NCBI GenBank assembly: GCA_913031625.1
Contig: CAJWGB010000027.1
Location: forward strand, 1 to 36,612
Origin: an uncultured Planctomycetaceae bacterium
Lineage (GTDB): Bacteria; Planctomycetota; Planctomycetia; Planctomycetales; Planctomycetaceae
Direction of reading: 5' to 3'
Length of the DNA: 36,612 bases
Position 1 is the first letter of the stretch; each line of letters starts with the position of its first letter. Both the position numbers and the translations under genes were made by a program. Below the pieces are notes generated by a model. That model ran no database searches. It had not been told where the DNA came from and saw only the letters and a list, made by a program, of their open reading frames with translations. Below are positions 1 through 35,996 of the stretch, in pieces.

Positions 1-135
1 CGTTCTGAGGTTCACCGTTCTGAGGTTCACCGTTCTGAGGTTCACCGTTCTGAGGTTCACCGTTCTGAGGTTCACCGTTCTGAGGCTCACCGTTCTGAGG
101 CTCACCGTTCTGAGGCTCACCGTTCTGAGGCTCAC
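1..135 (-). repeat. 15-bp in-frame tandem repeat (EPQNG), nine copies visible
   Basis: Nine head-to-tail 15-bp units occupy 1-135 and may continue beyond the window. On the plus strand the unit reads cgttctgaggttcac (five copies, 1-75) or cgttctgaggctcac (four copies, 76-135). They differ by one synonymous base (Glu GAA or GAG on the coding strand). Because the unit is a multiple of three, copy changes keep the giant gene in frame. The near-perfect nucleotide identity points to recent slippage or unequal crossover. Confidence 0.97.
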
Positions 136-3100
136 GAGTTTGCTGTGCCTGAGCCTGTGCCTCGGCTGCAGCAAGGAGCGGCTCAATCGCTTCGGAAAGA
201 TTCTCCGCTTCCTGCCGAAACGTATCTTCTGCGTTCGCCAGAGCCTGCTGCGCCTCCTGAGCCTGCTGGTTGTTGGGGCCCTCGTCCTGTGGCATCCCGC
301 TGTCAGGCATTCCCCCCTGAGCCGGCTGCTCGCCCTGATTCTGATTGTTTGCCTGCGTCTGCTGAGCAGCCTGAGCTTCGGCCTGTGCATTCGCCATCGC
401 TTCGGCGGCTGCCTCATTAAGCTGGTTTTGCGCAGTCTGAGACTCGTTATCCGCTGCCTGCTGAATATTTTCAGCGACCTGCTGAATCGGCTCAGCGGCC
501 GCTTCATTATTGAGTCGTCGTTCGTGCCTTGCAGCACGTGCCACGTCTTCGGCAGTCTGCTTGACGTCCTGAGTGACCTCCTGCTGCTTCTGCTCGGCAG
601 CCGCCAGTTGTCCCTGAGACGGGGTCAATTCGTCACCAAAGTCGGACTTCGACTTCAACCCCTGTGCTTTCTCGTTCAACTGCTTCGCAACTTCCTGAGC
701 CTTCTCAGCAAACTCGTCTGCCAGTTCAGTGGCTGGGTTAGGAGCATTCAGCGGAGCGGTGGCCGACTTGTTTATCTCCTCATTCTTCTGCTTCACTGCT
801 TCGGCTTCGGCAACTCGCTGTTTCTCAACAGCCTTCGTTTCTGCCACACGTTTGTCCTCAACCTCCTGCTTTCGAGCTTCCTCACGCGCGACCGCAGCTT
901 TCAGCGACGGGTTGTCTGGCTGGCGGGCAAGGTTTCGTTTGGCGGCGTCAATTCGACGTTGAGCTGCCTTCTGTTGATTCTCGGCGACACGCACCTGCTG
1001 TTCGGCCTGACGTTTGCGCAGGTCAGCCTCTCGCTGTTCATTCGCCATATTGCGTTTCTGAGCTTCCACAAATGCCTTGCGCTGTTCTTCAGAAGCCTGC
1101 TTTGCGGCCTGTCGGGCTTTTTCGTCAGCATGGATCTTTTGATCCTTGCCGGTTTCAGTTTGCTTCTTCGCCTCATCCAGTGCGGCGGTCGCTTCGGCAA
1201 TCCGTTCAGCCGCTTCATTTGCCGTTTGCTGAAGATCTTCCAGTGGCTGGGTCTCACGGGATGCATTTGCTTTCGCTGCCGCCTGATTCAGTTTCTGCTG
1301 GGTCTCTGCCAGCTTCTTCTGAGCTTCCGGCGTCTTTCCTCGGGCTGCCGCCTGATTTGCCTGAGCAACAAGTTCGTTGGAAAGCTTTTGTGCTTCCTGA
1401 CCGAGTTGCCGCAGTTCTTCTGCCAGATCCTTCTTCTTCTGAACGAACTCCTGGTCCGATTGTTCGTTCGACTGCTGGAGACGTTCATCTTCCACAGCTG
1501 CGTTCTCCAGCGCTGCCTTTGCCTCTTCCAGCGTATTGCGTGAAATCTCAGACAGTGCTTCCTGCATCGCCGGATTCTGCTTGAGTTCCTCTTCCAGCTC
1601 AGCAATCAGATCTTCCGTGTCCGTCTGGGCCATTTCAGCCAGTTCGTGGGCATTCTCAAACTGCTGATTCATCTCAGCCGCAATTCCCTGTTGCTGTTCC
1701 GTGGCCCGCAGCTCTTCCCGGGTCTCAGCCACATCTTCGCCGGCGTCGAGTTTTTCAAAGTGCTCAGCAATCAGCTCAAGCGCCTGTGCTGTCTTCTCCT
1801 GCTCTTCGGCTGACCGGGAAAGCTCATTTGCCTGTTGCTGCTGGTCATCTGCCTGTTTCGCAGCATCCAGCGCCTGATTCATCTCCGCCGCTGGTTTCTG
1901 GACGAGGGCGATACTGTCGTCTGCATCGCGAGCACGCTCCAGTTCTTCTTCGTCCAGAATGTCCTGCGAATTTGCGTCTTCAACCAGAGCTTCAAAAAGG
2001 TCTTCCAGTTGCTCATTAACCGCTTCACGCTGCTGCTCCAGCTGAGCAACCTGTTCGTCGGCCTGCTCCGGAGAATCAGACTGTTCCACTTCATCCGCCG
2101 CCTGAGTGGTTTCATCTTCCAGCCTGCGAACCGACTCCGCAGCTGCCCGAGCCATTTCCGGTATCGTCGGAGCATACTTCGCGATCACAGCGCGCGCTTC
2201 CGCCATGACGGGCTTCAACTCTTCGGCCACCCGGTCAATACCATCACGAATCTCTTCCACTTCATGACCGGCGCCGATGACGATGTCTCGTCGCCAGCGA
2301 CGTTCCGTGATTCTCTGTTGAGCGTCCCGGTGCGCCGGACTTGAACGCAGCTGGTCAATCTTTGCGACGATTTCGTTATCGACCTTTGCCGCCCGCAACA
2401 TTGCTGCCGCATTCAACAGACCATTGGAAACGAACTCCCACTGACGTGGATTGTCAGTTCGACCTTCCAGCTTCTGAGCGTCCCAGCGTTCCTGACTGAG
2501 GAGTGCTCGAATCGCATGCTGCAGTTCAACGACAGCGTGTCCGGCCTCGAGAACACGGTACGCAGGAGCAATCTCCATCAGGTGATCCGCGACTTTGGAT
2601 TCCTGTGGCTTGGTGGCCTGATGCTGGTTAAGCAGTCCGGTTGTGGCACGATGAGTCAGTCCGGCATCCGCGGCATACTGAGCATCTGCATCACGACGAG
2701 ACTGGGTGAGTGACCTGCGTTCGCGAAGCTGATCAACTCCCGGTCGCCGCTTGCTGGTAGTCTCAGCCAGGAACTGATCCGCCTGCTTTCGAAGATCCAG
2801 GCCCTGATCCAGATCTGCTGCGTCCGCTGCCTGCCGAGCAAGATTCGTTTCCTGACGTACACTGTTGCTGAGCTGATAGATTGGATCGTAAAGCGTCCCG
2901 GACCGATTTTGAAAGTCGCGTCGTGCACCGACAACGCGTGCCGGCAGACTGCCGTCCGTGATCTCATACCGATCCTTTGCTTTGAGTTCATTGTATATCT
3001 GAACAGAAGCTGCCTTCAGTTCAGGGAGTTTGTCTTCAGACTCTGTCCCGGCATTCAGGCGATCCCGATGAGTCGTGAGCCACGTGAGCAGTTGATCAAC

Positions 3101-26939: not shown

Positions 26940-27599
26940 ATGAGCGACGAGCTGCCAGACCCTGAAGAATCAGAAGACCTGCCTGAAGCCCAGGAAGCCT
27001 CTGCAGTTGCTGCGTCTGCAGAGCCGCCGCACCCTCGTACACTTTGGCCGGTCTCAATCTGCTTCTGGCTCACACTTCTGCTTGCTGCTGTTGTCTACGG
27101 CTCTGTATTTCTTGCTCCCAAACTGGCAGTCTGGAATCGACTTCGTTTCGAGCACGAACAGAATGCTGCGCGTCTTGTGGAACTGGATAATGAAGTTGAA
27201 TACCTCGAACGTGTCGAAGACACGCTCAGGACAGATCCGGATTTCCTGCGGAGGCTCTCAGAGAATTCGCATTTAATCAACGACGGTGAACTCATCCCGG
27301 TCAGCGGCAACCTGCTGTTCGGTGTGGATGACGAAGAACAGAAGACTGAGACGGCCGCTAACGCTCCGCCACTCCAATGGCTGATTGAGCGACTTGCAGC
27401 TGATCGAAGTCTGAGAAGTGGGTTGCTGGCGTTTACTGCAGCCCTGGTCGTATTGGCGTTTACGTTCCTGAATGACGCCGGAACCGGATTGATCAGCGAC
27501 GCAGGATTCGTCATTCGCAGATTGTTCACGCTGCCCGCAGGACGTTATCGAGTCGCCGCTCAACGTGCCGCAGTCCGATCGGAAACGGACGAAGAGTAG
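26940..27599 (+). CDS. FtsB/DivIC-like septum formation initiator protein
   Basis: 219 residues. An acidic N-terminus (1-30) is followed by a membrane helix (about 37-59, 'VSICFWLTLLLAAVVYGSVF'), a coiled coil (about 66-98, 'RFEHEQNAARLVELDNEVEY') and 'TDPDFLRRLSEN'. This helix-coil-'DP.F' pattern is that of FtsB/DivIC division proteins. Unlike the short FtsB, it continues with a second hydrophobic segment (about 158-178, 'SGLLAFTAALVVLAFTFL') and a charged tail. The position directly after eno supports the call, because ftsB follows eno in many bacteria. Most planctomycetes lack FtsZ (family knowledge), so any division role would be unusual. ATG 26940 is the only plausible start, with just a partial GGA site upstream. 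Confidence 0.55.
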   Translation: MSDELPDPEESEDLPEAQEASAVAASAEPPHPRTLWPVSICFWLTLLLAAVVYGSVFLAPKLAVWNRLRFEHEQNAARLVELDNEVEYLERVEDTLRTDPDFLRRLSENSHLINDGELIPVSGNLLFGVDDEEQKTETAANAPPLQWLIERLAADRSLRSGLLAFTAALVVLAFTFLNDAGTGLISDAGFVIRRLFTLPAGRYRVAAQRAAVRSETDEE

Positions 27600-27952: not shown

Positions 27953-29611
27953 TTACTTCGGTGCGTGGAATTCGAAGAACGAAAACCCGAAGTGCACGAG
28001 CAGTGTGAACAGTGTTGACCAGAGAATCGTCTGAGTCACGCCCTTACTGATATCAGGCGCCGACTGTTTGGGAGACGATCCACACTTCCACGAGATCATG
28101 GCCATGCCGACAGCACATGTCAGCAGCTTGGCAAACAGCCAGTCAGTTCCCTTTGGCAGAACTGACTCAGGCAGTCGAAGCTCCCGATGAAAATGGTACG
28201 CCCAGAACGCAATGCCTTCCTGAGAGTGGGTCGCCAGAAAGGCAACAGCACTGGTCAGACTGGCAACGGCATAGCTGAAGAATGTCAGTAACGGAACGCC
28301 CAACAGGAATGCATACAGTATCGGCGTTCGGATCGTACGCCACGGACGCATCCCGACAGTCCGCATGGCATCCAGCTGGTTGCCGTAGACTTTACTGCCG
28401 ACGTCCGCAGACACTGCTGCTCCCGAACGCGCAGCAATCAGAATTGTGCACAGGATGGGGACAAGAAACCGGTACAGCGAAAATCCGGTGGCATGTAGCA
28501 GGTTTTCTATCAGCAAGGGCTCGGTGTACTGGCGAAATGGCAGATACCGAAAGATGAAGTCCTGCGCCACGAATCCAATGATCATCCCGGCAACAGCAAT
28601 ATAGAACAAGGCTGACGGGCCACATACGAGCCGCACGTAATGCCATGTTGTGCGCGTTCCCCAGCGGAAGCTTCTCCAGAGAGGAAGCAGGGCCACCGGT
28701 AGAACCAGCAGTTGTTCAACGAAGTCGCCGATGGCACAAACTGCTCGGCCGATCTGCCGAGCAGCTCTCCTGAGAAGTCCGTCCGGCTGGATTGCACTGG
28801 CGTCCACGCGAGGTGGCTCACCCAGGAGTTCGCCCAGCCGATCCCAGTCGTCAACAGCCACTTCCTGAAGCTGCAGAGTGTGATGATTCAGAAGCACAAC
28901 GTGATCGGCGATGCCTCGCAGCGCCTCAAAGTCATGGGTCACAATGACGGAGGTCCGCTGAAATTTCTTCTGGGTTTCCCGGATCAGTTCCGCAACCTGG
29001 GCAGCCGTATTTCGATCGAGTCCCGACGTCGGTTCATCGTATAGAATGATGTCTGTGTTCATCCCAAGAGCACGGGCAATTGCCAGACGCTGCTGCTGCC
29101 CGCCACTCAGGACAGGCGTTGGGCGATCGTCTGGAACACCCAGTTCTGTCAGCAAGTCACGTGCCTGCGATTTCGACTGTTGTCCGCGTTGATCTGAGGA
29201 ATGCTCAACAGCGATCTCGATGTTCTCGCTGGGAGTCAACTCATCGAACAGAGCAAAGCTCTGAAAAACCACAGCGACCGGGTGAGTTCTATGATTACGC
29301 TGCGAATTTTCAGCGTCGCCGAACTTTATCTTCCCTGAATACCTGATTGCCGGATCCTGCCTGTCGATCAGACCCGCAAGGATCTTCAGCAGCAACGACT
29401 TTCCAACACCACTGCAGCCCAGGACAAGAGTGATCTTTCCAGCCGGGAATCCGGCACCTGACTTCTCAAGCAGAACTCGGCCGCCGGCACTCAGCTGAAA
29501 ATCAGTGATTTCAATCTGTGTTCCGGTTTCCACAGACTCAAGCTCAACGGTCTCCGTTTCAGGTGTTGGAACGTCTGCCTCCGGCCTAGTGTTGTCAGAT
29601 TCAGCGGTCAT
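27953..29611 (-). CDS. MlaF-MlaE fusion: ABC ATPase fused to MlaE-type permease
   Basis: 552 residues from ATG 29611 (GGAG seven nt upstream). A longer frame to 29674 would overlap the preceding gene. The N-terminal half is an ABC ATPase: Walker A GCSGVGKS (65-72), Q-loop 'VVFQSFALFDELTPSENI', signature 'LSGGQQQRLAIARALG', Walker B 'IILYDEPTSGLD' and H-loop 'VIVTHD'. A linker leads to an MlaE permease domain (about 300-552) with several membrane segments and the hallmark 'AARSGAAVSADVGSKVYGNQ' followed by 'LDAMRTVGMRPWRTI'. In E. coli these are separate proteins (MlaF, MlaE) that move phospholipids between the membranes with the MCE protein MlaD. Here both are in one chain. Its upstream neighbour ends 13 nt before this start, so they form an operon. 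Confidence 0.93.
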   Translation of the reverse strand: MTAESDNTRPEADVPTPETETVELESVETGTQIEITDFQLSAGGRVLLEKSGAGFPAGKITLVLGCSGVGKSLLLKILAGLIDRQDPAIRYSGKIKFGDAENSQRNHRTHPVAVVFQSFALFDELTPSENIEIAVEHSSDQRGQQSKSQARDLLTELGVPDDRPTPVLSGGQQQRLAIARALGMNTDIILYDEPTSGLDRNTAAQVAELIRETQKKFQRTSVIVTHDFEALRGIADHVVLLNHHTLQLQEVAVDDWDRLGELLGEPPRVDASAIQPDGLLRRAARQIGRAVCAIGDFVEQLLVLPVALLPLWRSFRWGTRTTWHYVRLVCGPSALFYIAVAGMIIGFVAQDFIFRYLPFRQYTEPLLIENLLHATGFSLYRFLVPILCTILIAARSGAAVSADVGSKVYGNQLDAMRTVGMRPWRTIRTPILYAFLLGVPLLTFFSYAVASLTSAVAFLATHSQEGIAFWAYHFHRELRLPESVLPKGTDWLFAKLLTCAVGMAMISWKCGSSPKQSAPDISKGVTQTILWSTLFTLLVHFGFSFFEFHAPK

Positions 29612-29624
29612 GCGTCTCTCCGAA

Positions 29625-30989
29625 TCATTGATCCTGTGGCGTGAGTGGACTCTGAATCTCACCGGAGTACCCAACCGGATAAATCATGGGAGACTTCTGC
29701 ATATCCACAACACGGACAAAGTCACGAGGAGTTGACGACCCTGACTCAACGACATCCGTTTCCTCACCCTGAACCGGCACAAGGACAAACCAGCGACGGT
29801 CTTTCTGAAGAATCTGCAGCCGCAGAATCCTGGAAAACTGAGGCGTGATTCCACTCTCACGCGTCCCAAACAGGATGTCGCCAATATGCCTCACCATAGG
29901 TTCAACCCGCCCGCCGGCGATCTGCATGACAGTGCGTGTTTCCTGCTCCTTGAGATAACCCTCGACGGAGTCACGCAGGCGTTCATTCTCGATCAATGAC
30001 TCCCGGACAATATTCCAGATCAGTCGCTGAAGTTCCGGATCTTCGGCTACCTGTTTAAGGTTTTCCCTAAGCACCGCTTTGACTTTGGGATTGTCCATAG
30101 ATCGCCGCACAATACGTTCCGTCACCTTGATGAACTGATCTGTTCTTGACTCAAGCTCGGGGATTGCTTCCTCCCGAACGAATCTCTGAAACTCACCCTT
30201 CACACGGTCCTTCTTCGGCAGGGGGGACTGATCAAACACGTATCGCCATGCGAATCCCCACAGTGAGACTCGCTTCCAGAGGTCACGGCCGACGTCTTCA
30301 ACCACCGGGGTTGCTTCAGCCTGAACGATTGGCAGAATCTCCTTTCTCACAAGAGGCACGAGGTCTTCCTTAAGAATCTCAGTCTCATAACGGTCACCGA
30401 TCGCTTCGAACTCACTGCGATGGGCTTTGAGTATGTCGGGGAGCTCCTGCTCGACAGCCTTCAACGCTGTCCGAATTCCTTCAGAGATGACAGGCCGCAG
30501 TTCAAGGAGCAACTGCTGTTTGTTCTTCTGCCACTCCTGAGCAAGGTACTCTTTGATTTCATCCTGTCGCTCCTTCGGTGCAAGCGTGCGAACAACAGAG
30601 TCAAGCGACAATGAGGTGCGGTGATAATGGAGTTCGTAGCCATCCGGACACCTGTTCAATGCATTGCGAAAGATCTCGAACTCAAACTCCTTCTGCCATG
30701 ACGCATCGCGACTGGTTCCACCGTCGATGTTGTTCAGAATTCCAACCTGACGATAAGAACCATCATCCAGCAACTGGAAGACGGGGTCGTCCAGTGCCAC
30801 AAGCAGATGGGTGGGATATTCAGTCCGCAGGACCTCAGACTGTCCGGTGACCCATTCACCAACATCTTCGGTGAGTTCCGGGATGCTGCTGGATTGAGCT
30901 GCCAGCTCGCTGCGCAACGTAGTTCCCGCCCACCACACTGCTGCCGTGATGGTCAGAATCCCAATCAGAAAGTGTCGGTACGTCTGCAT
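29625..30989 (-). CDS. Membrane-anchored protein of unknown family, partner of the Mla-type transporter
   Basis: 454 residues from ATG 30989, with no good Shine-Dalgarno. A single N-terminal hydrophobic segment (about 7-27, 'FLIGILTITAAVWWAGTTL') should anchor it with the rest in the periplasm. A short segment near residues 60-90 ('HLLVALDDPVFQLLDDGSYR' followed by 'QVGILNNI') faintly resembles the start of an MCE domain. The middle is mostly helical and charged ('EYLAQEWQKNKQQLLLEL', 'EILPIVQAEATPVVEDVG'), which suggests a long helical tube or coiled coil. It lies 13 nt before the MlaF-MlaE fusion, the place where an MlaD-like substrate protein would be expected. The pairing is seen; the MCE-like role is inference. 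Confidence 0.7.
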   Translation of the reverse strand: MQTYRHFLIGILTITAAVWWAGTTLRSELAAQSSSIPELTEDVGEWVTGQSEVLRTEYPTHLLVALDDPVFQLLDDGSYRQVGILNNIDGGTSRDASWQKEFEFEIFRNALNRCPDGYELHYHRTSLSLDSVVRTLAPKERQDEIKEYLAQEWQKNKQQLLLELRPVISEGIRTALKAVEQELPDILKAHRSEFEAIGDRYETEILKEDLVPLVRKEILPIVQAEATPVVEDVGRDLWKRVSLWGFAWRYVFDQSPLPKKDRVKGEFQRFVREEAIPELESRTDQFIKVTERIVRRSMDNPKVKAVLRENLKQVAEDPELQRLIWNIVRESLIENERLRDSVEGYLKEQETRTVMQIAGGRVEPMVRHIGDILFGTRESGITPQFSRILRLQILQKDRRWFVLVPVQGEETDVVESGSSTPRDFVRVVDMQKSPMIYPVGYSGEIQSPLTPQDQ

Positions 30990-31172: not shown

Positions 31173-32723
31173 TTACTTCTTGAACAGACCGCTGATTGCA
31201 CCCGTTGATGATGATGTCGGAGTGCGACGTTTTGAGAATTTGCCGGAGATGACAGCCGAGCTTTCACGCTTGGCTCCCCGTGCTCCGACTGCTCGGCTGT
31301 GAGCACCGTTTGGAAGCACAGCCGGGAATCCATCCGCAGATTCAGGGGTCCATGCAATCTGTCGACGCTTATAGCCAATATGCTCAAGATAGGTCGAAAG
31401 ACCCACTTCATAGATACCGCGTTTTTCAGCTTCCTTACGGAGGACATCCGCGTTCTCATTGATCTGGCGATACAGGTCTTTGAGCTCTGCGTTGGCAGTC
31501 GACTGATCACCAAGATCAGCGATGACGATGAATCGTGTCCTGGCAGAAATCAGTGTCCTGGCTTCGTCTTCAGTGATGATCTGTCCGCGACCATCAAGAA
31601 ACTCGCCTTTGTCGTCGACCTGAACAGACACCTTGCTGCCGGAACGCTGCACCTGACGATGGAATTCGGCTCGACTGAGTCCATCAAGACGGACAGCACC
31701 AACAACGGCAATCTCCAGAGCCTGACCTGACTGGAAGACCGGGTTGAAGACGGGGTCCAGTTCAGCAATTGGGCTGCCGAGCTGCTCATCAAGAATCTTG
31801 GCTTCTGCACGATGTGGGCCAAGGATTCGAACGACTTCAATCTTGCCTTTGATGTCTTCTGTTCGAGCTCGACCAACGCCGGAATTATCTTTTCGGTAGA
31901 CCGAGAAGGACACCCCAACCTGCAGACCATCTGCACTGCCGATGTTCAGGTAACACAGCTCTCGCACATGATCAACAGTGTCTACCATTCCATCTGGAGT
32001 AAAGAATGTGAGGTCCTGTCGGTCTCGCAGTCGAGACCGCAGATTGACAACAGAAAGTCGATACTCATCTCGCTCTGATTCAAGATCTTCGATGCGGGCA
32101 CGAGACTCATTTTCAAGGTCCGAGTATTTCTGTTTGAGTTCCCGGATCTCAGCATTTCGCTCGTCGTTGATTGCTTCCAGTCTCTTCATTTCTTCGTCGT
32201 GCTCTTGTTCAATTGCAACGACACGATTGTTGAGTGCCTCTTTTGCGGTCTCAAGAGTTGAGATCTTATCGTCCTTGTTCTTGAGGTCATTCGTGAACCG
32301 AGCCTGAGCAGCATCGAGGTTCTGCTTTCGCTGAACAGCTGCGTGGTTGTAGCGATCGCTTTCAACCCCGGTGTTGCGGAGAGCGTCAAGCCACGTGCCC
32401 GAGTTTGCTCCGGCCTGTGTTTCCGGTCGTGCCCATTGAGCAATATTAGCCTGGGCCGTCTTCTCAAGATCTGTCTTGAAGTCAGCCAGATCATCGGACA
32501 CTTTCGGGTCCTGAATCCCGACCAGCCGCTGCAGCTCTGTGAGTTGAGCTGACAGGTCTTTCACGTCTGTTGTTCGCTCAGACGCAGTGCGTTCAGATTC
32601 GTTGAGTTTGGCAGCGAGGGCCTCTCGCTCTGTGTTCGTCATGTACCATGCGACCGCAAATCCGATGGAAAGGACTACGAAAATAGCGAGGCCAATGATC
32701 GGTCCGGTTTTGTTTTGAGCCAT
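31173..32723 (-). CDS. Membrane-anchored coiled-coil protein, unknown function
   Basis: 516 residues from ATG 32723; only a GGGA lies upstream, so the start rests on the membrane segment following it. Residues 9-27 form one membrane helix ('IIGLAIFVVLSIGFAVAWYM'). Coiled coil follows at about 30-70 and 130-235 ('EQEHDEEMKRLEAINDERNA' and neighbours). Residues about 240-440 look globular and mostly beta: 'LCYLNIGSADGLQVGVSFSV', 'GKIEVVRILGPHRAEAKIL', then a stretch around 'SGSKVSVQVDDKGEFLDGRG'. The tail is basic and Ser/Thr-rich, ending SGLFKK. I recognise no family. Layout (anchor, coil, beta domain) is loosely like MreC and suggests an envelope scaffold, but that is inference. It has its own terminator. 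Confidence 0.8.
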   Translation of the reverse strand: MAQNKTGPIIGLAIFVVLSIGFAVAWYMTNTEREALAAKLNESERTASERTTDVKDLSAQLTELQRLVGIQDPKVSDDLADFKTDLEKTAQANIAQWARPETQAGANSGTWLDALRNTGVESDRYNHAAVQRKQNLDAAQARFTNDLKNKDDKISTLETAKEALNNRVVAIEQEHDEEMKRLEAINDERNAEIRELKQKYSDLENESRARIEDLESERDEYRLSVVNLRSRLRDRQDLTFFTPDGMVDTVDHVRELCYLNIGSADGLQVGVSFSVYRKDNSGVGRARTEDIKGKIEVVRILGPHRAEAKILDEQLGSPIAELDPVFNPVFQSGQALEIAVVGAVRLDGLSRAEFHRQVQRSGSKVSVQVDDKGEFLDGRGQIITEDEARTLISARTRFIVIADLGDQSTANAELKDLYRQINENADVLRKEAEKRGIYEVGLSTYLEHIGYKRRQIAWTPESADGFPAVLPNGAHSRAVGARGAKRESSAVISGKFSKRRTPTSSSTGAISGLFKK

Positions 32724-33092: not shown

Positions 33093-35996
33093 CTACCTTG
33101 GGACCTCGTAGGCCCGTTGCCCTTCTATTATGTGAATCTGGGTACCCTGCGGAGGTTTCGCGACCTCAGTGGAATGCCCCGAAGGCCAGACAATCTCAAC
33201 CTGCTGAATGGGCGATTGACAGCCAGCAAACGCGACACGCTGATTGGAACACTGATATCCATCACCGGCAGTGATCTGATGCAACTGAGACCATGCGCCG
33301 CTGGCCCCCGTTCCTGAGACACGAATCTGAGTGCCGATCGCATCTCTTCCGGATTCTCTGCCCGTCACGGACACGCTGATCCAGGAGTTGCTTCCGGAGT
33401 CGCTCTCATTGGTTAAGAGGAATGTCGGAGCGTCAAGAAGCCCCACTGCCAGGTCCGGCTTCCCGTCTCGATTCCAATCCAGACGAGCCACCGCGCGGCC
33501 GACCATCTTCTCTGAACTCCACTCGCCGACGTGCCCCGGTTCGTGAAGAGCAAATCCTTCACCCGCCCATTCAAACAGAAATGGCGACATCTGGTACGGA
33601 GTACCTTCTGCGGAAAGGTCTTCCGTATGGCCGTTGGCGACAAACAGCTCCTGCCGGCCATCAAGATTCGCATCCAGAAACTGCGTGCCAAAACCCAATA
33701 CGGGCAAAGTCGATTCATGCAGCTGAAACGTGAGCGTTCGGTCTTCGAACAGGGACGGTGCGATTGTCGAGTAAATCGTATTTGATTCATGCAGGAAGTT
33801 TGTGACATGAATCTCCGGACTGCCGTCCTGGTCACAATCTGCAAACGCAATTCCCATGCAGGCTTCGGCCTTGCCGCCTCCACTGTAGGCAAGGCCGGCC
33901 GCGACAGCACTCTCTGCCCACGACTGACTGTCGGCATCATGCTGATAATAGAGATTCGCCGTCGTGTCGTTCGCCACAAAGATCTGCAGCGCATCACCAG
34001 ATCGAAACCCGAGGACCCCGAGCCCCTTACCGATCGGCGCCGTGTCGGAAAACACATCCGTCCCGTCACTGAAGGTGCCGTCTCCTGCGCTCAACAGGAT
34101 TCTGTCCCGCGCGGCCGTGAAATCGTAAGGCGTACACATGACTGTGCCGTGCTCTCCCTGACACAGTCGATCGAAGACATCGTCGTCGCTGACATAATTA
34201 ACATCGTATACATCCGGATCACCATCACCGTTGAGGTCAGCGATCATGCACGATGTCGTCCACGCGTCGGAAATGTCAGGAAGTTCTGCATTTGAAAACG
34301 TCCCGTCTCCGTTATTGATCCACAATTCGTTCGTGTGTGTGTTGGCAACATAGACGTCGGGAAAGCCATCACTGTTTATGTCACCCACAGCGACTCCCTG
34401 ACCGAATCCCTGCTCTTCGGCAATCCCGGCCACCGAAGAAACCTCTTCCAGCCGCTGCCCCATCCTGTTCAGGAAGACGCGGTCGTGGTGGCGATCGTCC
34501 TGAGCCTGCCAGAGTTTTCCCTGTGTGCAGAAGATGTCTTCCCAGCCATCCCGATCAAGGTCCAGACTGGCGATGCCGCCACCCGTAAACTCAAACATAC
34601 GGCGAGTTGGAACCTCAGCGCCTTTGAAATACGTGAAGTCGAATCCCATGTTGGCAGCCTGACGACGAAACTGAATGTTGTCTGACACCCCGACGGAAGC
34701 ATGACTCTCCATTGGCTGGATCACGGGAACCGGCAGATCAGACAGGTCAATTCCAAACGCCGGGTTCAGATGAATGGCAGTCTGCTGCAACGGCAAACCA
34801 CTGATCTCTTCCCGAAGGGACACCATGAGTTTCTGGAGCCGATTGTCAGGCTGAGGCATGGCGAGCGCCGAGGTCCCCCATGCCCATGCTTCCCAGAGGC
34901 GGCCCGTTTCATAAAAGGTGCTGATGAGACTGTATGCAGACTCGAAGTCAGCTGTGCCGCCGGAGAAAATGACAGTCTGTTGCAGGTCGCGCAGCTGATT
35001 CAGTTGGTCGACTCGGTGAGAAAACGGTTCCGCATCTCCGTCGCGGCCCAATTGTCGGAGCAGGGTTGCCGTCCGATTCAGTGGTTCGAGAGCTTCGGGC
35101 TTCAGCCTCGCCGCTTCCCACGCACATCGAAGCGCACCTTTGTGATCTCCCCGAGAATCCGCCAGCAGAGATGCCGCCATCCATTCCTCGGCCGAACCAG
35201 GCTGCCAGTCGGCCGGCACCAGTGTCGCAATCTCCTCCAGCTGATGTGTATTGCGCAGCAGTCCGCAGAGGACGGAAAACCAGGCATCGTGAATCGACTC
35301 AGAGTCCGACTCCGATTGCCGCATAATGCGTAATGCTTCCTGATGATTTCCCTCCATGGTCAGCTGAGTCACCTCACCCAGAACGGGCATCGGGTCCAGA
35401 GGGGCGGCTTCCTTGGCACGGCTCAGTAACTCGGGATCAGTCAGGCCGCCGGACTCCTTGAGAATGAGCATGAGTAGATCGGTGTCCACACCAGCACGCA
35501 CAAGGAAAAGCACGTGGGGTACGGCTTCGTCGCGTCTGCCACACAGTCCAAGCAATCTGGCACGGGCATCGTGAATCTGCTGATCATCCGGCGAAGTCTC
35601 GAGAATCTGCTGATAGAGCTGATCTGCCTTTTGAAACTGAAGAACGTCGTAATGGCAGATTTTTGCAAGCAGTCTTGCACTTTCAGGCCAGTCGGGAGCC
35701 GACGAGGGGATACGGGACAGAACCTCTACGGCATTCTGTGATTCTTTGCGGTGATCAAGCGCCTGTCCGGATATATAGAGCGCAGTGGAGTTGTTCGGGG
35801 CAGCCTCGAGCACCGCTATGGCATACTCGCCAGCTGCTGCAAACCGTCCCTTCGAAAGCTCAATCCGAGCCAATCGGAGATTTTCTTCAACACTCGAGAC
35901 CTGAGTCGTGTAGAGTAGAACTCCTGCCACCGTGACGATCCACGCGGCAAGCCCTCCCAGAACCCACTTTTTTTTTCCTCCCTTACTCAAACGCAT
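33093..35996 (-). CDS. TPR / FG-GAP (VCBS) / ASPIC-UnbV secreted protein
   Basis: 967 residues. An N-terminal anchor or signal (about 11-31, 'WVLGGLAAWIVTVAGVLLYT') follows a basic stretch. Residues about 38-330 are helical TPR-like repeats ('GRFAAAGEYAIAVLEAAPNN', 'ADQLYQQILETSPDDQQIHD'). Then come at least six FG-GAP/VCBS calcium loops of the D-x-[DN]-x-D-G type: 'LDLDRDGWEDIF', 'GDINSDGFPDVYV', 'ADLNGDGDPDVY', 'ADCDQDGSPEIHV', 'LDANLDGRQELFV' and 'LDWNRDGKPDLAV'. The C-terminus is an ASPIC/UnbV domain ('GRDAIGTQIRVSG', 'VEIVWPSG'). The family is greatly expanded in planctomycetes, exported, and probably binds ligands or partners outside the cytoplasm. The start is ambiguous: AGGAG lies just one nt before ATG 35996 but six nt before TTG 35990. 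Confidence 0.93.
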   Translation of the reverse strand: MRLSKGGKKKWVLGGLAAWIVTVAGVLLYTTQVSSVEENLRLARIELSKGRFAAAGEYAIAVLEAAPNNSTALYISGQALDHRKESQNAVEVLSRIPSSAPDWPESARLLAKICHYDVLQFQKADQLYQQILETSPDDQQIHDARARLLGLCGRRDEAVPHVLFLVRAGVDTDLLMLILKESGGLTDPELLSRAKEAAPLDPMPVLGEVTQLTMEGNHQEALRIMRQSESDSESIHDAWFSVLCGLLRNTHQLEEIATLVPADWQPGSAEEWMAASLLADSRGDHKGALRCAWEAARLKPEALEPLNRTATLLRQLGRDGDAEPFSHRVDQLNQLRDLQQTVIFSGGTADFESAYSLISTFYETGRLWEAWAWGTSALAMPQPDNRLQKLMVSLREEISGLPLQQTAIHLNPAFGIDLSDLPVPVIQPMESHASVGVSDNIQFRRQAANMGFDFTYFKGAEVPTRRMFEFTGGGIASLDLDRDGWEDIFCTQGKLWQAQDDRHHDRVFLNRMGQRLEEVSSVAGIAEEQGFGQGVAVGDINSDGFPDVYVANTHTNELWINNGDGTFSNAELPDISDAWTTSCMIADLNGDGDPDVYDVNYVSDDDVFDRLCQGEHGTVMCTPYDFTAARDRILLSAGDGTFSDGTDVFSDTAPIGKGLGVLGFRSGDALQIFVANDTTANLYYQHDADSQSWAESAVAAGLAYSGGGKAEACMGIAFADCDQDGSPEIHVTNFLHESNTIYSTIAPSLFEDRTLTFQLHESTLPVLGFGTQFLDANLDGRQELFVANGHTEDLSAEGTPYQMSPFLFEWAGEGFALHEPGHVGEWSSEKMVGRAVARLDWNRDGKPDLAVGLLDAPTFLLTNESDSGSNSWISVSVTGRESGRDAIGTQIRVSGTGASGAWSQLHQITAGDGYQCSNQRVAFAGCQSPIQQVEIVWPSGHSTEVAKPPQGTQIHIIEGQRAYEVPR

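What the first reader, a model, noticed from the sequence alone, without database searches (positions are those of the whole stretch)
27953..30989. Fused Mla ATPase-permease with an unrecognised anchored partner
ATPase and permease of a phospholipid transporter are one polypeptide, and the gene before it encodes a 454-residue anchored helical protein in place of a clear MlaD. This may be a distinct form of inter-membrane lipid transporter suited to the planctomycete envelope.
Basis: partly seen in the sequence, partly recalled or inferred. Interest (0 to 1): 0.55.

Follow-up and report, generated by a model that had tools for sequence, protein, structure and literature searches.

The report
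Lipid transporter with helix-split ring protein
In planctomycete bacteria, two neighbouring genes appear to make an unusual pump for moving lipids between the cell's membranes: motor and membrane channel are one protein, and the ring protein that normally sits on top seems to have its pore loop blown up into a long helical arm.

Summary
27953-29611(-) is one polypeptide with a complete ABC ATPase and an MlaE permease (start ATG 29611, 552 aa, not TTG 29674); 29625-30989(-) encodes its 454-aa anchored partner, 13 nt upstream. The pair is conserved: the same 18 of 101 same-family genomes hold both genes; of 294 phylum genomes the partner profile matches 66, in 57 directly before the fusion's permease.

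The 'unrecognised partner' is best explained as a diverged MlaD-type MCE protein. Its N-terminal part matches MCE profiles. AlphaFold models of two members 22% identical show the seven-stranded MCE barrel broken between strands 5 and 6, at the pore-lining loop, by about 268 mostly helical residues (usual loop 5-27); in the better model MlaD aligns over 96 of 98 residues, Z 12.1. Sequence alone does not prove the last two strands. In three sister loci the slot holds a recognised double-MCE protein. The genome also has a canonical mlaEFD set but no MlaA or MlaC match.

Verdict: new variant of MCE lipid transporter. Best mechanism: a ring whose enlarged pore loops form a periplasmic tube on a fused ATPase-permease dimer. 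Hexamer, tube, cargo and outer-membrane contact are inferred.

The parts
29625..30989 (-). Partner gene, 454 aa: split-MCE protein (MlaD-type, diverged)
   Evidence: ORF; MCE match by profile; predicted fold; homologues
30894..30986 (-). N-terminal membrane anchor, residues 2-32
   Evidence: helix 2-32 in the model; most hydrophobic 19-residue stretch of the family starts at residue 7
30618..30839 (-). MCE barrel, N-terminal part (strands 1-5), residues 51-124
   Evidence: profile match ends here; matches LetB MCE domains
29805..30605 (-). Helical insertion at the position of the MCE pore-lining loop, residues 129-395
   Evidence: helices 129-392 in the model; median length 268 aa in 33 members
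30216..30278 (-). Conserved aromatic stretch near the middle of the insertion (residues 238-258), proposed hairpin tip
   Evidence: conservation; alignment; tip position inferred from helix order
29691..29804 (-). MCE barrel, C-terminal part (strands 6-7), residues 396-433
   Evidence: strands 399-405 and 425-429, aligned with the end of MlaD/LetB/Mce1 MCE domains; not significant by sequence alone
29616..29621 (-). Ribosome-binding-site-like GGAGAG before the fusion gene
   Evidence: read from sequence
27953..29611 (-). Fused ATPase-permease (MlaF-MlaE type), 552 aa from ATG 29611
   Evidence: Pfam; alignment of homologues; motifs
29024..29449 (-). ABC ATPase domain (ABC_tran match)
   Evidence: residues 76-217 of the 573-aa ORF; motifs
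27980..28624 (-). MlaE permease domain

Best explanation
A two-gene MCE lipid transporter of the planctomycete envelope. SHOWN BY SEQUENCE OR PREDICTION: the downstream gene is a half-transporter (ATPase then MlaE-type permease in one chain); the upstream gene is a membrane-anchored protein with the first five strands of an MCE domain (profiles and models) and, by prediction, the last two strands after about 268 residues of amphipathic helices, so that the barrel is interrupted where other MCE proteins have the pore-lining loop. INFERRED: the half-transporter works as a homodimer; six partner subunits form an MCE ring on it, as MlaD does on MlaE; their enlarged pore loops, helices running out and back, rise from the middle of the ring as a tube (twelve helical arms if all six hairpins stand upright) whose conserved aromatic tip reaches towards the outer membrane; ATP hydrolysis drives lipid through ring and tube. 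Because no MlaC or MlaA was found in the genome, a tunnel is likelier than a ferry. Direction and cargo are unknown; glycerophospholipid is the default guess.
For: Fusion: Pfam ABC_tran and MlaE above cut-offs in one frame; ATPase motifs; homologues fused through the phylum sample. Pairing: partner in 18 of 101 family genomes, fusion permease in the same 18 at E <= 4.3e-76 plus one diverged case, G046 at 9e-16, whose locus also has a diverged partner directly upstream (E 7e-22); partner profile in 66 of 294 phylum genomes, 57 of them with a permease match of this type directly downstream (open frame 500+ aa in all but G337, 380 aa), a 58th (G168); where unlinked, the permease was still found in G053, G010 and G380-G383 (in G381 as a 314-aa frame near a contig start). 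Only these two genes stand out as conserved neighbours in 75 loci. MCE identity: partner profile against PDB sequences hits LetB at whole-chain E 8.8e-8, summed over weak domains (best single domain E about 0.5); profile-profile comparison with MlaD-type proteins of the phylum gives E 3.2e-8 for that one comparison, 2e-9 without the anchor helix, ending at column 96 of 114, just before LGGKYIEISPG; PF02470 itself reaches the partners of 2 of 17 partner-bearing genomes, at E 1.8e-4 and 9.6e-4, ending at position 64-65 of 81. Fold: the window model (pLDDT 76.5) has MCE structures in its 26 top rows, best Z 8.2; a member 22% identical (pLDDT 82.2) gives Z 12.3 to Mce1 and 12.1 to the MlaD core, 96 of 98 residues, rmsd 2.9, model 69..446, and MCE structures in its 30 top rows; the best non-MCE row is Z 8.7 at rmsd 33.9. 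Insertion site: Mce4A aligns only up to its residue 104, and Thr106/Ile107 lie in its strand 5-6 loop, the pore-lining loop (PMC8420772, passages). Slot: 3 sister fusions have a recognised double-MCE protein directly upstream. Both arms of the insert show a 3.8-residue hydrophobic period (0 of 300 shuffles as strong for each arm; one sub-stretch, 262-311, 24 of 300). No MlaC or MlaA match in the genome.
Against: The C-terminal strands have no significant sequence match to the end of MCE domains: the C-terminal profile alone matched only at a wrong place; joining it to the N-terminal part helped no more than joining a helical piece (E 1.7e-9 against 2.2e-9); in the sliding test the expected register came out best but with a negative score that 152 of 200 column shuffles equalled or beat. 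The closing of the barrel therefore rests on AlphaFold2, which knows MCE structures, with block pLDDT of about 45-85 in that part; the two predictions share their sequences (31 of the same 33) and are not independent. Foldseek gave no hit at E <= 0.001 for either model (best hits were MlaFEDB chains, E 0.022 and 0.014), the tool warns that Z near 8 may mean only a common arrangement, and pTM is 0.46-0.49, so the course of the helices is unsure. The window protein itself has no PF02470 match. Hexamer, tube and outer-membrane contact were not tested. Partner without a strong permease match: G233 and G257 (79% and 84% complete). One fusion, in G149, has its nearest partner-like ORF 4.6 kb downstream instead of adjacent.
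Confidence: 0.72

Rival explanations
1. The partner is an MCE protein of the ordinary 'anchor - MCE - helical tail' plan (as in Mce1, TGD2, Veillonella MlaD): a shortened barrel followed by a C-terminal needle, and the last strands are an unrelated tail or an outer-membrane-side cap rather than strands 6-7.
For: Only the N-terminal half matches MCE by sequence; the C-terminal match is not significant. Anchor-MCE-helical-tail proteins are known from mycobacteria (PMC8420772, passages), Veillonella (PMC10665443, passages) and plants (TGD2, mentioned in PMC12436622, passages).
Against: Strands 6-7 are missing from the N-terminal half in both models and appear after the helices, where they align with the end of MlaD, LetB and Mce1 MCE domains. 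28 of 33 members keep an insert of 253-272 aa, as expected if its ends must meet.
Confidence: 0.17
2. The pair is an MCE-type complex in which the helical arms do not make a tube but act as a spacer or brace against peptidoglycan or the outer membrane, lipids being handed to a separate carrier.
For: Coiled-coil rows in the fold search (SMC arms, dynein stalk; large rmsd) fit a plain antiparallel hairpin; no tube could be predicted because only single chains were folded.
Against: No MlaC-type carrier in the genome, though an unrelated carrier is not excluded; both arms have a strong hydrophobic face.
Confidence: 0.2
3. The partner is not an MCE protein; the similarity is a chance resemblance of small barrels, and the gene pair is a different ABC exporter with a helical adaptor (MacA/EmrA-like).
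For: No PF02470 or PDB sequence hit for the window protein itself; EmrA appears among weak rows (Z 6.2, rmsd 10.6).
Against: Profile matches to MCE proteins, 26 and 30 consecutive top rows all MCE, MlaE permease partner, and recognised MCE proteins in the same slot of sister loci.
Confidence: 0.04

Closest known systems
MlaFEDB (E. coli, Acinetobacter, Pseudomonas)
   Same: MlaE-type permease, MlaF-type ATPase, single-anchor single-MCE partner encoded beside it
   Different: ATPase and permease are separate chains there (MlaF2E2D6B2; PMC7790496, passages); MlaD's pore-lining loop is six residues (PMC8420772, passages); the E. coli pathway has MlaA and MlaC, no match here
Mycobacterial Mce1 (YrbE-MceG-Mce1ABCDEF)
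   Same: MCE ring on a YrbE permease with an ATPase; long helical part; best fold match
   Different: Six different MCE proteins whose C-terminal helices form the needle above the MCE ring (PMC9882608, passages); here one gene, and the helices lie inside the barrel sequence
Veillonella parvula long MlaD
   Same: Single-anchor MCE protein of 419 aa with a long helical region, in a system without MlaA/C
   Different: Helices and an outer-membrane beta-barrel follow the MCE domain; that paper reports no such barrel in MlaD of the PVC group and located MCE domains with PF02470 (PMC10665443, passages), which scores the present family below its cut-off
PqiB / LetB and Brucella MpcEFDA
   Same: MCE proteins proposed or shown to make trans-envelope tunnels; Mpc is described as an Mla-Pqi chimera (PMC12436622, passages)
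   Different: Stacked MCE rings (three in PqiB, seven in LetB) and/or a coiled-coil needle; pore-lining loops of 16-27 residues in PqiB/LetB (PMC8420772, passages)
Sister fusions with double-MCE protein (L113, L194, L195)
   Same: Fused ATPase-permease with an MCE gene directly upstream
   Different: Two recognised MCE domains; a trypsin-like C-terminal domain clearly in L113 and weakly in L195

Membership tests
MCE protein (MlaD type) | single N-terminal membrane helix | tested here: met
   helix 2-32 in the model; hydrophobic maximum at residues 7-25
MCE protein (MlaD type) | seven-stranded MCE barrel | tested here: met
   on predicted models only: (MlaD core 96 of 98 residues aligned, Z 12.1); strands 6-7 not supported by sequence
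MCE protein (MlaD type) | PF02470 match above the curated cut-off (a detection criterion) | tested here: not met
   no match for the window protein; best partner orthologue 24.0 bits against 25.1; remote profile matches positive
MCE protein (MlaD type) | short pore-lining loop between strands 5 and 6 (5-27 residues in characterised proteins) | tested here: not met
   median 268 residues in 33 members; known lengths from PMC8420772, passages. Hence filed as a variant, not an ordinary member
MCE protein (MlaD type) | hexameric ring on an MlaE-type permease | not testable with these tools
   only single chains were folded; permease partner present
MlaFE-type ABC transporter | ABC ATPase with complete motifs and MlaE permease | tested here: met
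MlaFE-type ABC transporter | ATPase and permease as separate chains | tested here: not met
   one 552-aa chain, fused in the homologues aligned; the genome's other set is separate
E. coli Mla pathway | MlaC shuttle and MlaA in the same genome | tested here: not met
   0 matches to PF05494 and PF04333 in the genome (96% complete); 2 of 14 control genomes, E. coli and Caulobacter, ring
PqiB/LetB/Mce1-type tunnel | tube made by stacked MCE rings or a C-terminal needle | tested here: not met
   one MCE barrel, helices inside it in both models; whether it works like them remains open

The most novel reading that the evidence does not exclude
A third way to build a lipid tunnel from MCE domains: not by stacking rings (LetB) nor by a C-terminal needle (Mce1, PqiB), but by enlarging the pore-lining loop of a single ring tenfold or more, so that gate and tube are one element; driven by a fused homodimeric ATPase-permease transporter and reaching the outer membrane by its aromatic hairpin tips. 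In the tree the split-MCE fusions form one side of a branch next to fusions with ordinary double-MCE partners, fitting a single origin (support only 87/66).
Probability: 0.45. Interest if true: 0.78.

Novelty: new variant of a known kind. Interest (0 to 1): 0.6.

Why it matters
How lipids cross the periplasm is a long-open question, and the planctomycete envelope is unusual and little understood (general knowledge). This pair's partner occurs in about 26 planctomycete families of the sample, as numbered, yet scores below the standard MCE profile, so it would probably be annotated 'hypothetical protein'. If right, it shows that the pore-lining loop of an MCE domain can carry a whole helical domain, gives a compact two-gene lipid transporter to study, and offers profiles (partner and fusion) with which to find hidden MCE systems elsewhere.

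Tried and rejected
Partner by single-sequence search: no Pfam family above cut-off, no NCBIfam match and no PDB match below E 0.09, and a single-protein scan of genome contigs found no relative (27 stretches matched a pattern, 0 confirmed); the alignment-based scan confirmed 34 of 42. DUF445: weak Pfam matches in 7 of 33 members, best E 0.0088, in the helical part where looked at (3 of 8 proteins); below cut-off, taken as helical resemblance. C-terminal strand tests by sequence: negative. Internal repeats in the insertion: self-similarity exceeds shuffles (0 of 100), but those shuffles also destroy helical periodicity, so nothing is claimed. Other conserved neighbours (an outer-membrane protein or lipoprotein): none found with simple ORF calling and BLASTP in 75 loci, some of them the same contig twice; the third most frequent cluster occurs in 6. 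Fold matches of the helical insertion on its own were not searched. Literature: no description of a split MCE domain or of this pair in the listings; only passages of five papers were read, and the library holds openly licensed PMC papers only, so this is weak evidence of absence. Distribution outside Planctomycetota: no other phylum was searched by profile; the scan covers all species genomes held but by one short peptide pattern; one of its 34 records is titled Verrucomicrobia (L142), and its fusion falls among planctomycete ones in the tree.
Full report
What is there. On the minus strand lie two genes 13 nt apart. The downstream one (27953-29611, 552 aa from ATG 29611) has an ABC ATPase and an MlaE permease in one frame, both above Pfam's cut-offs, and the ATPase motifs. 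The upstream one (29625-30989, 454 aa) has a membrane anchor and no family match above cut-off.

The genome (G000, 6.7 Mb, 444 contigs) has a second MlaE (304-aa frame, E 2.8e-73) with an ATPase and an MlaD beside it on contig 16, and a 579-aa frame with two MCE domains on contig 14. The fused system is thus additional to an ordinary mlaEFD set. The MlaC and MlaA families have no match in the genome, while 2 of 14 controls (E. coli, Caulobacter) ring.

Conservation. In 101 genomes of the same family the partner was found in 18 and the fusion's permease, at E <= 1e-15, in 19: the same 18 at E <= 4.3e-76, plus G046 at 9e-16, where a diverged partner (E 7e-22) lies directly upstream. In 16 of the 18 the two genes are adjacent; in the other two (G053, G010) the fusion lies on another contig. 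In 294 genomes of the phylum the partner profile matched in 66, spread over 26 families as numbered there plus one with a marginal match (G161, E 6e-4). In 57 of the 66 a permease match follows directly; G168 makes 58. Of the other eight, five have both genes on different contigs (G132, G156, G283, G362, G370), two have no strong permease match (G233, G257) and one is the marginal match. In 34 named loci, 27 have the fusion next after the partner. Of the seven without it, L128, L134, L135 and L145 have a strong permease match elsewhere in the genome (in L135's genome only a 314-aa frame near a contig start), L129 is the contig of G053, and L130 and L149 are pieces from one isolate (not searched further). 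Nothing else in the neighbourhood stands out as conserved.

What the partner is. Its profile matches LetB in the PDB sequences at whole-chain E 8.8e-8, summed over weak matches to profile positions about 50-127 (best single domain about 0.5). Profile-profile comparison with MlaD-type proteins of the phylum gives E 3.2e-8 over the anchor and the first five strands (2e-9 without the anchor), and stops where MCE proteins continue with LGGKYIEISPG. The Pfam MlaD model reaches the partners of 2 of 17 partner-bearing genomes just below its cut-off, likewise ending at position 64-65 of 81. Structure prediction for the window protein (33 sequences, pLDDT 76.5) gives anchor, five strands (51-124), helices (129-392) and two more strands (399-405, 425-429). 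A second prediction with a member 22% identical in first place (L148; 31 of the same sequences, pLDDT 82.2) gives the same order. Foldseek alone reached no E <= 0.001. The second half of the barrel is therefore supplied by the C-terminus, on prediction. The sequence of those strands does not show it significantly.

The break lies at the pore-lining loop. In Mce4A the alignment with strands 1-5 ends at residue 104, and its strand 5-6 loop holds Thr106 and Ile107 (PMC8420772, passages). That paper gives loop lengths of five (Mce4A), six (MlaD) and 16-27 (PqiB, LetB) residues; here it is about 268 (28 of 33 members 253-272). The insertion's two arms are amphipathic with a period near 3.8 residues (0 of 300 shuffles as strong for each arm, though for one sub-stretch 24 of 300 were), and near its middle is a conserved aromatic stretch (residues 238-258).

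Sisters. Three fusion relatives (G116, G353, G220) have, directly upstream and overlapping, a recognised double-MCE protein. A permease tree of 49 hand-picked rows places the 41 split-MCE fusions on one side of a branch (87/66, not strong), with those three together (100/98) and unfused MlaE apart on a 100/100 branch. A recognised MCE protein in the partner's slot supports the reading of the partner and suggests the order: separate MlaE/MlaF, fusion with ordinary MCE, fusion with split MCE. The tree is midpoint-rooted for drawing and that order is inference.

Mechanism. MlaE resembles eukaryotic ABCA/ABCG transporters (PMC7790496, passages); ATPase followed by permease in one half-transporter is also the ABCG order (recalled, not tested). 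By analogy with MlaD6 on MlaE2, six partner chains would ring a fusion dimer. With helical hairpins growing from the pore-lining loop, a tube from ring to outer membrane is the simplest reading, since no MlaC was found. Each arm spans about 100-130 residues, 150 A or more if one straight helix (1.5 A per residue, general knowledge); breaks between helices and conserved prolines would shorten this. Cargo and direction are not shown.

Assessment. The MCE identity rests on three kinds of evidence (profiles, predicted fold, slot replacement); the split at the pore loop is likely but rests on prediction; hexamer, tube and lipid transport are inferred. This is a new variant of a known kind. No description was found in the searches named under Tried and rejected, in a library limited to openly licensed papers.

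Noticed in passing
L113:7772-9484(-) and L195:6774-8228(-): Double-MCE proteins with a C-terminal trypsin-like domain (PF13365: E 2e-8 in L113; E 0.0015, below cut-off, in L195), directly upstream of a fused ATPase-permease; an MCE-protease chimera. L194 has a similar layout without a Pfam match in that part.
   Followed up: partly
L196:4624-8016(+): Unfused operon in G302: permease frame (487 aa), ATPase (251 aa), MCE protein (393 aa), overlapping by 1 and 8 nt; possible pre-fusion layout.
   Followed up: partly
L111:3-1454(-): In G149 a diverged partner-like ORF (E 4e-27) lies about 4.6 kb downstream of the fusion, with two ORFs between whose N-termini carry P-loop-like motifs (seen by eye).
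   Followed up: no
window 31173-32723(-): 516-aa anchored coiled-coil protein with an unrecognised C-terminal part, upstream of the pair on the same strand; not among the clusters listed as conserved beside the pair.
   Followed up: no
window 33093-35996(-): 967-aa TPR, FG-GAP and ASPIC/UnbV protein; relatives lie near the pair in two other loci, L081 and L092.
   Followed up: no
window 26940-27599(+): 219-aa protein with a weak DivIC (septum formation initiator) match, E 0.013, below cut-off, after enolase (enolase named by eye).
   Followed up: no
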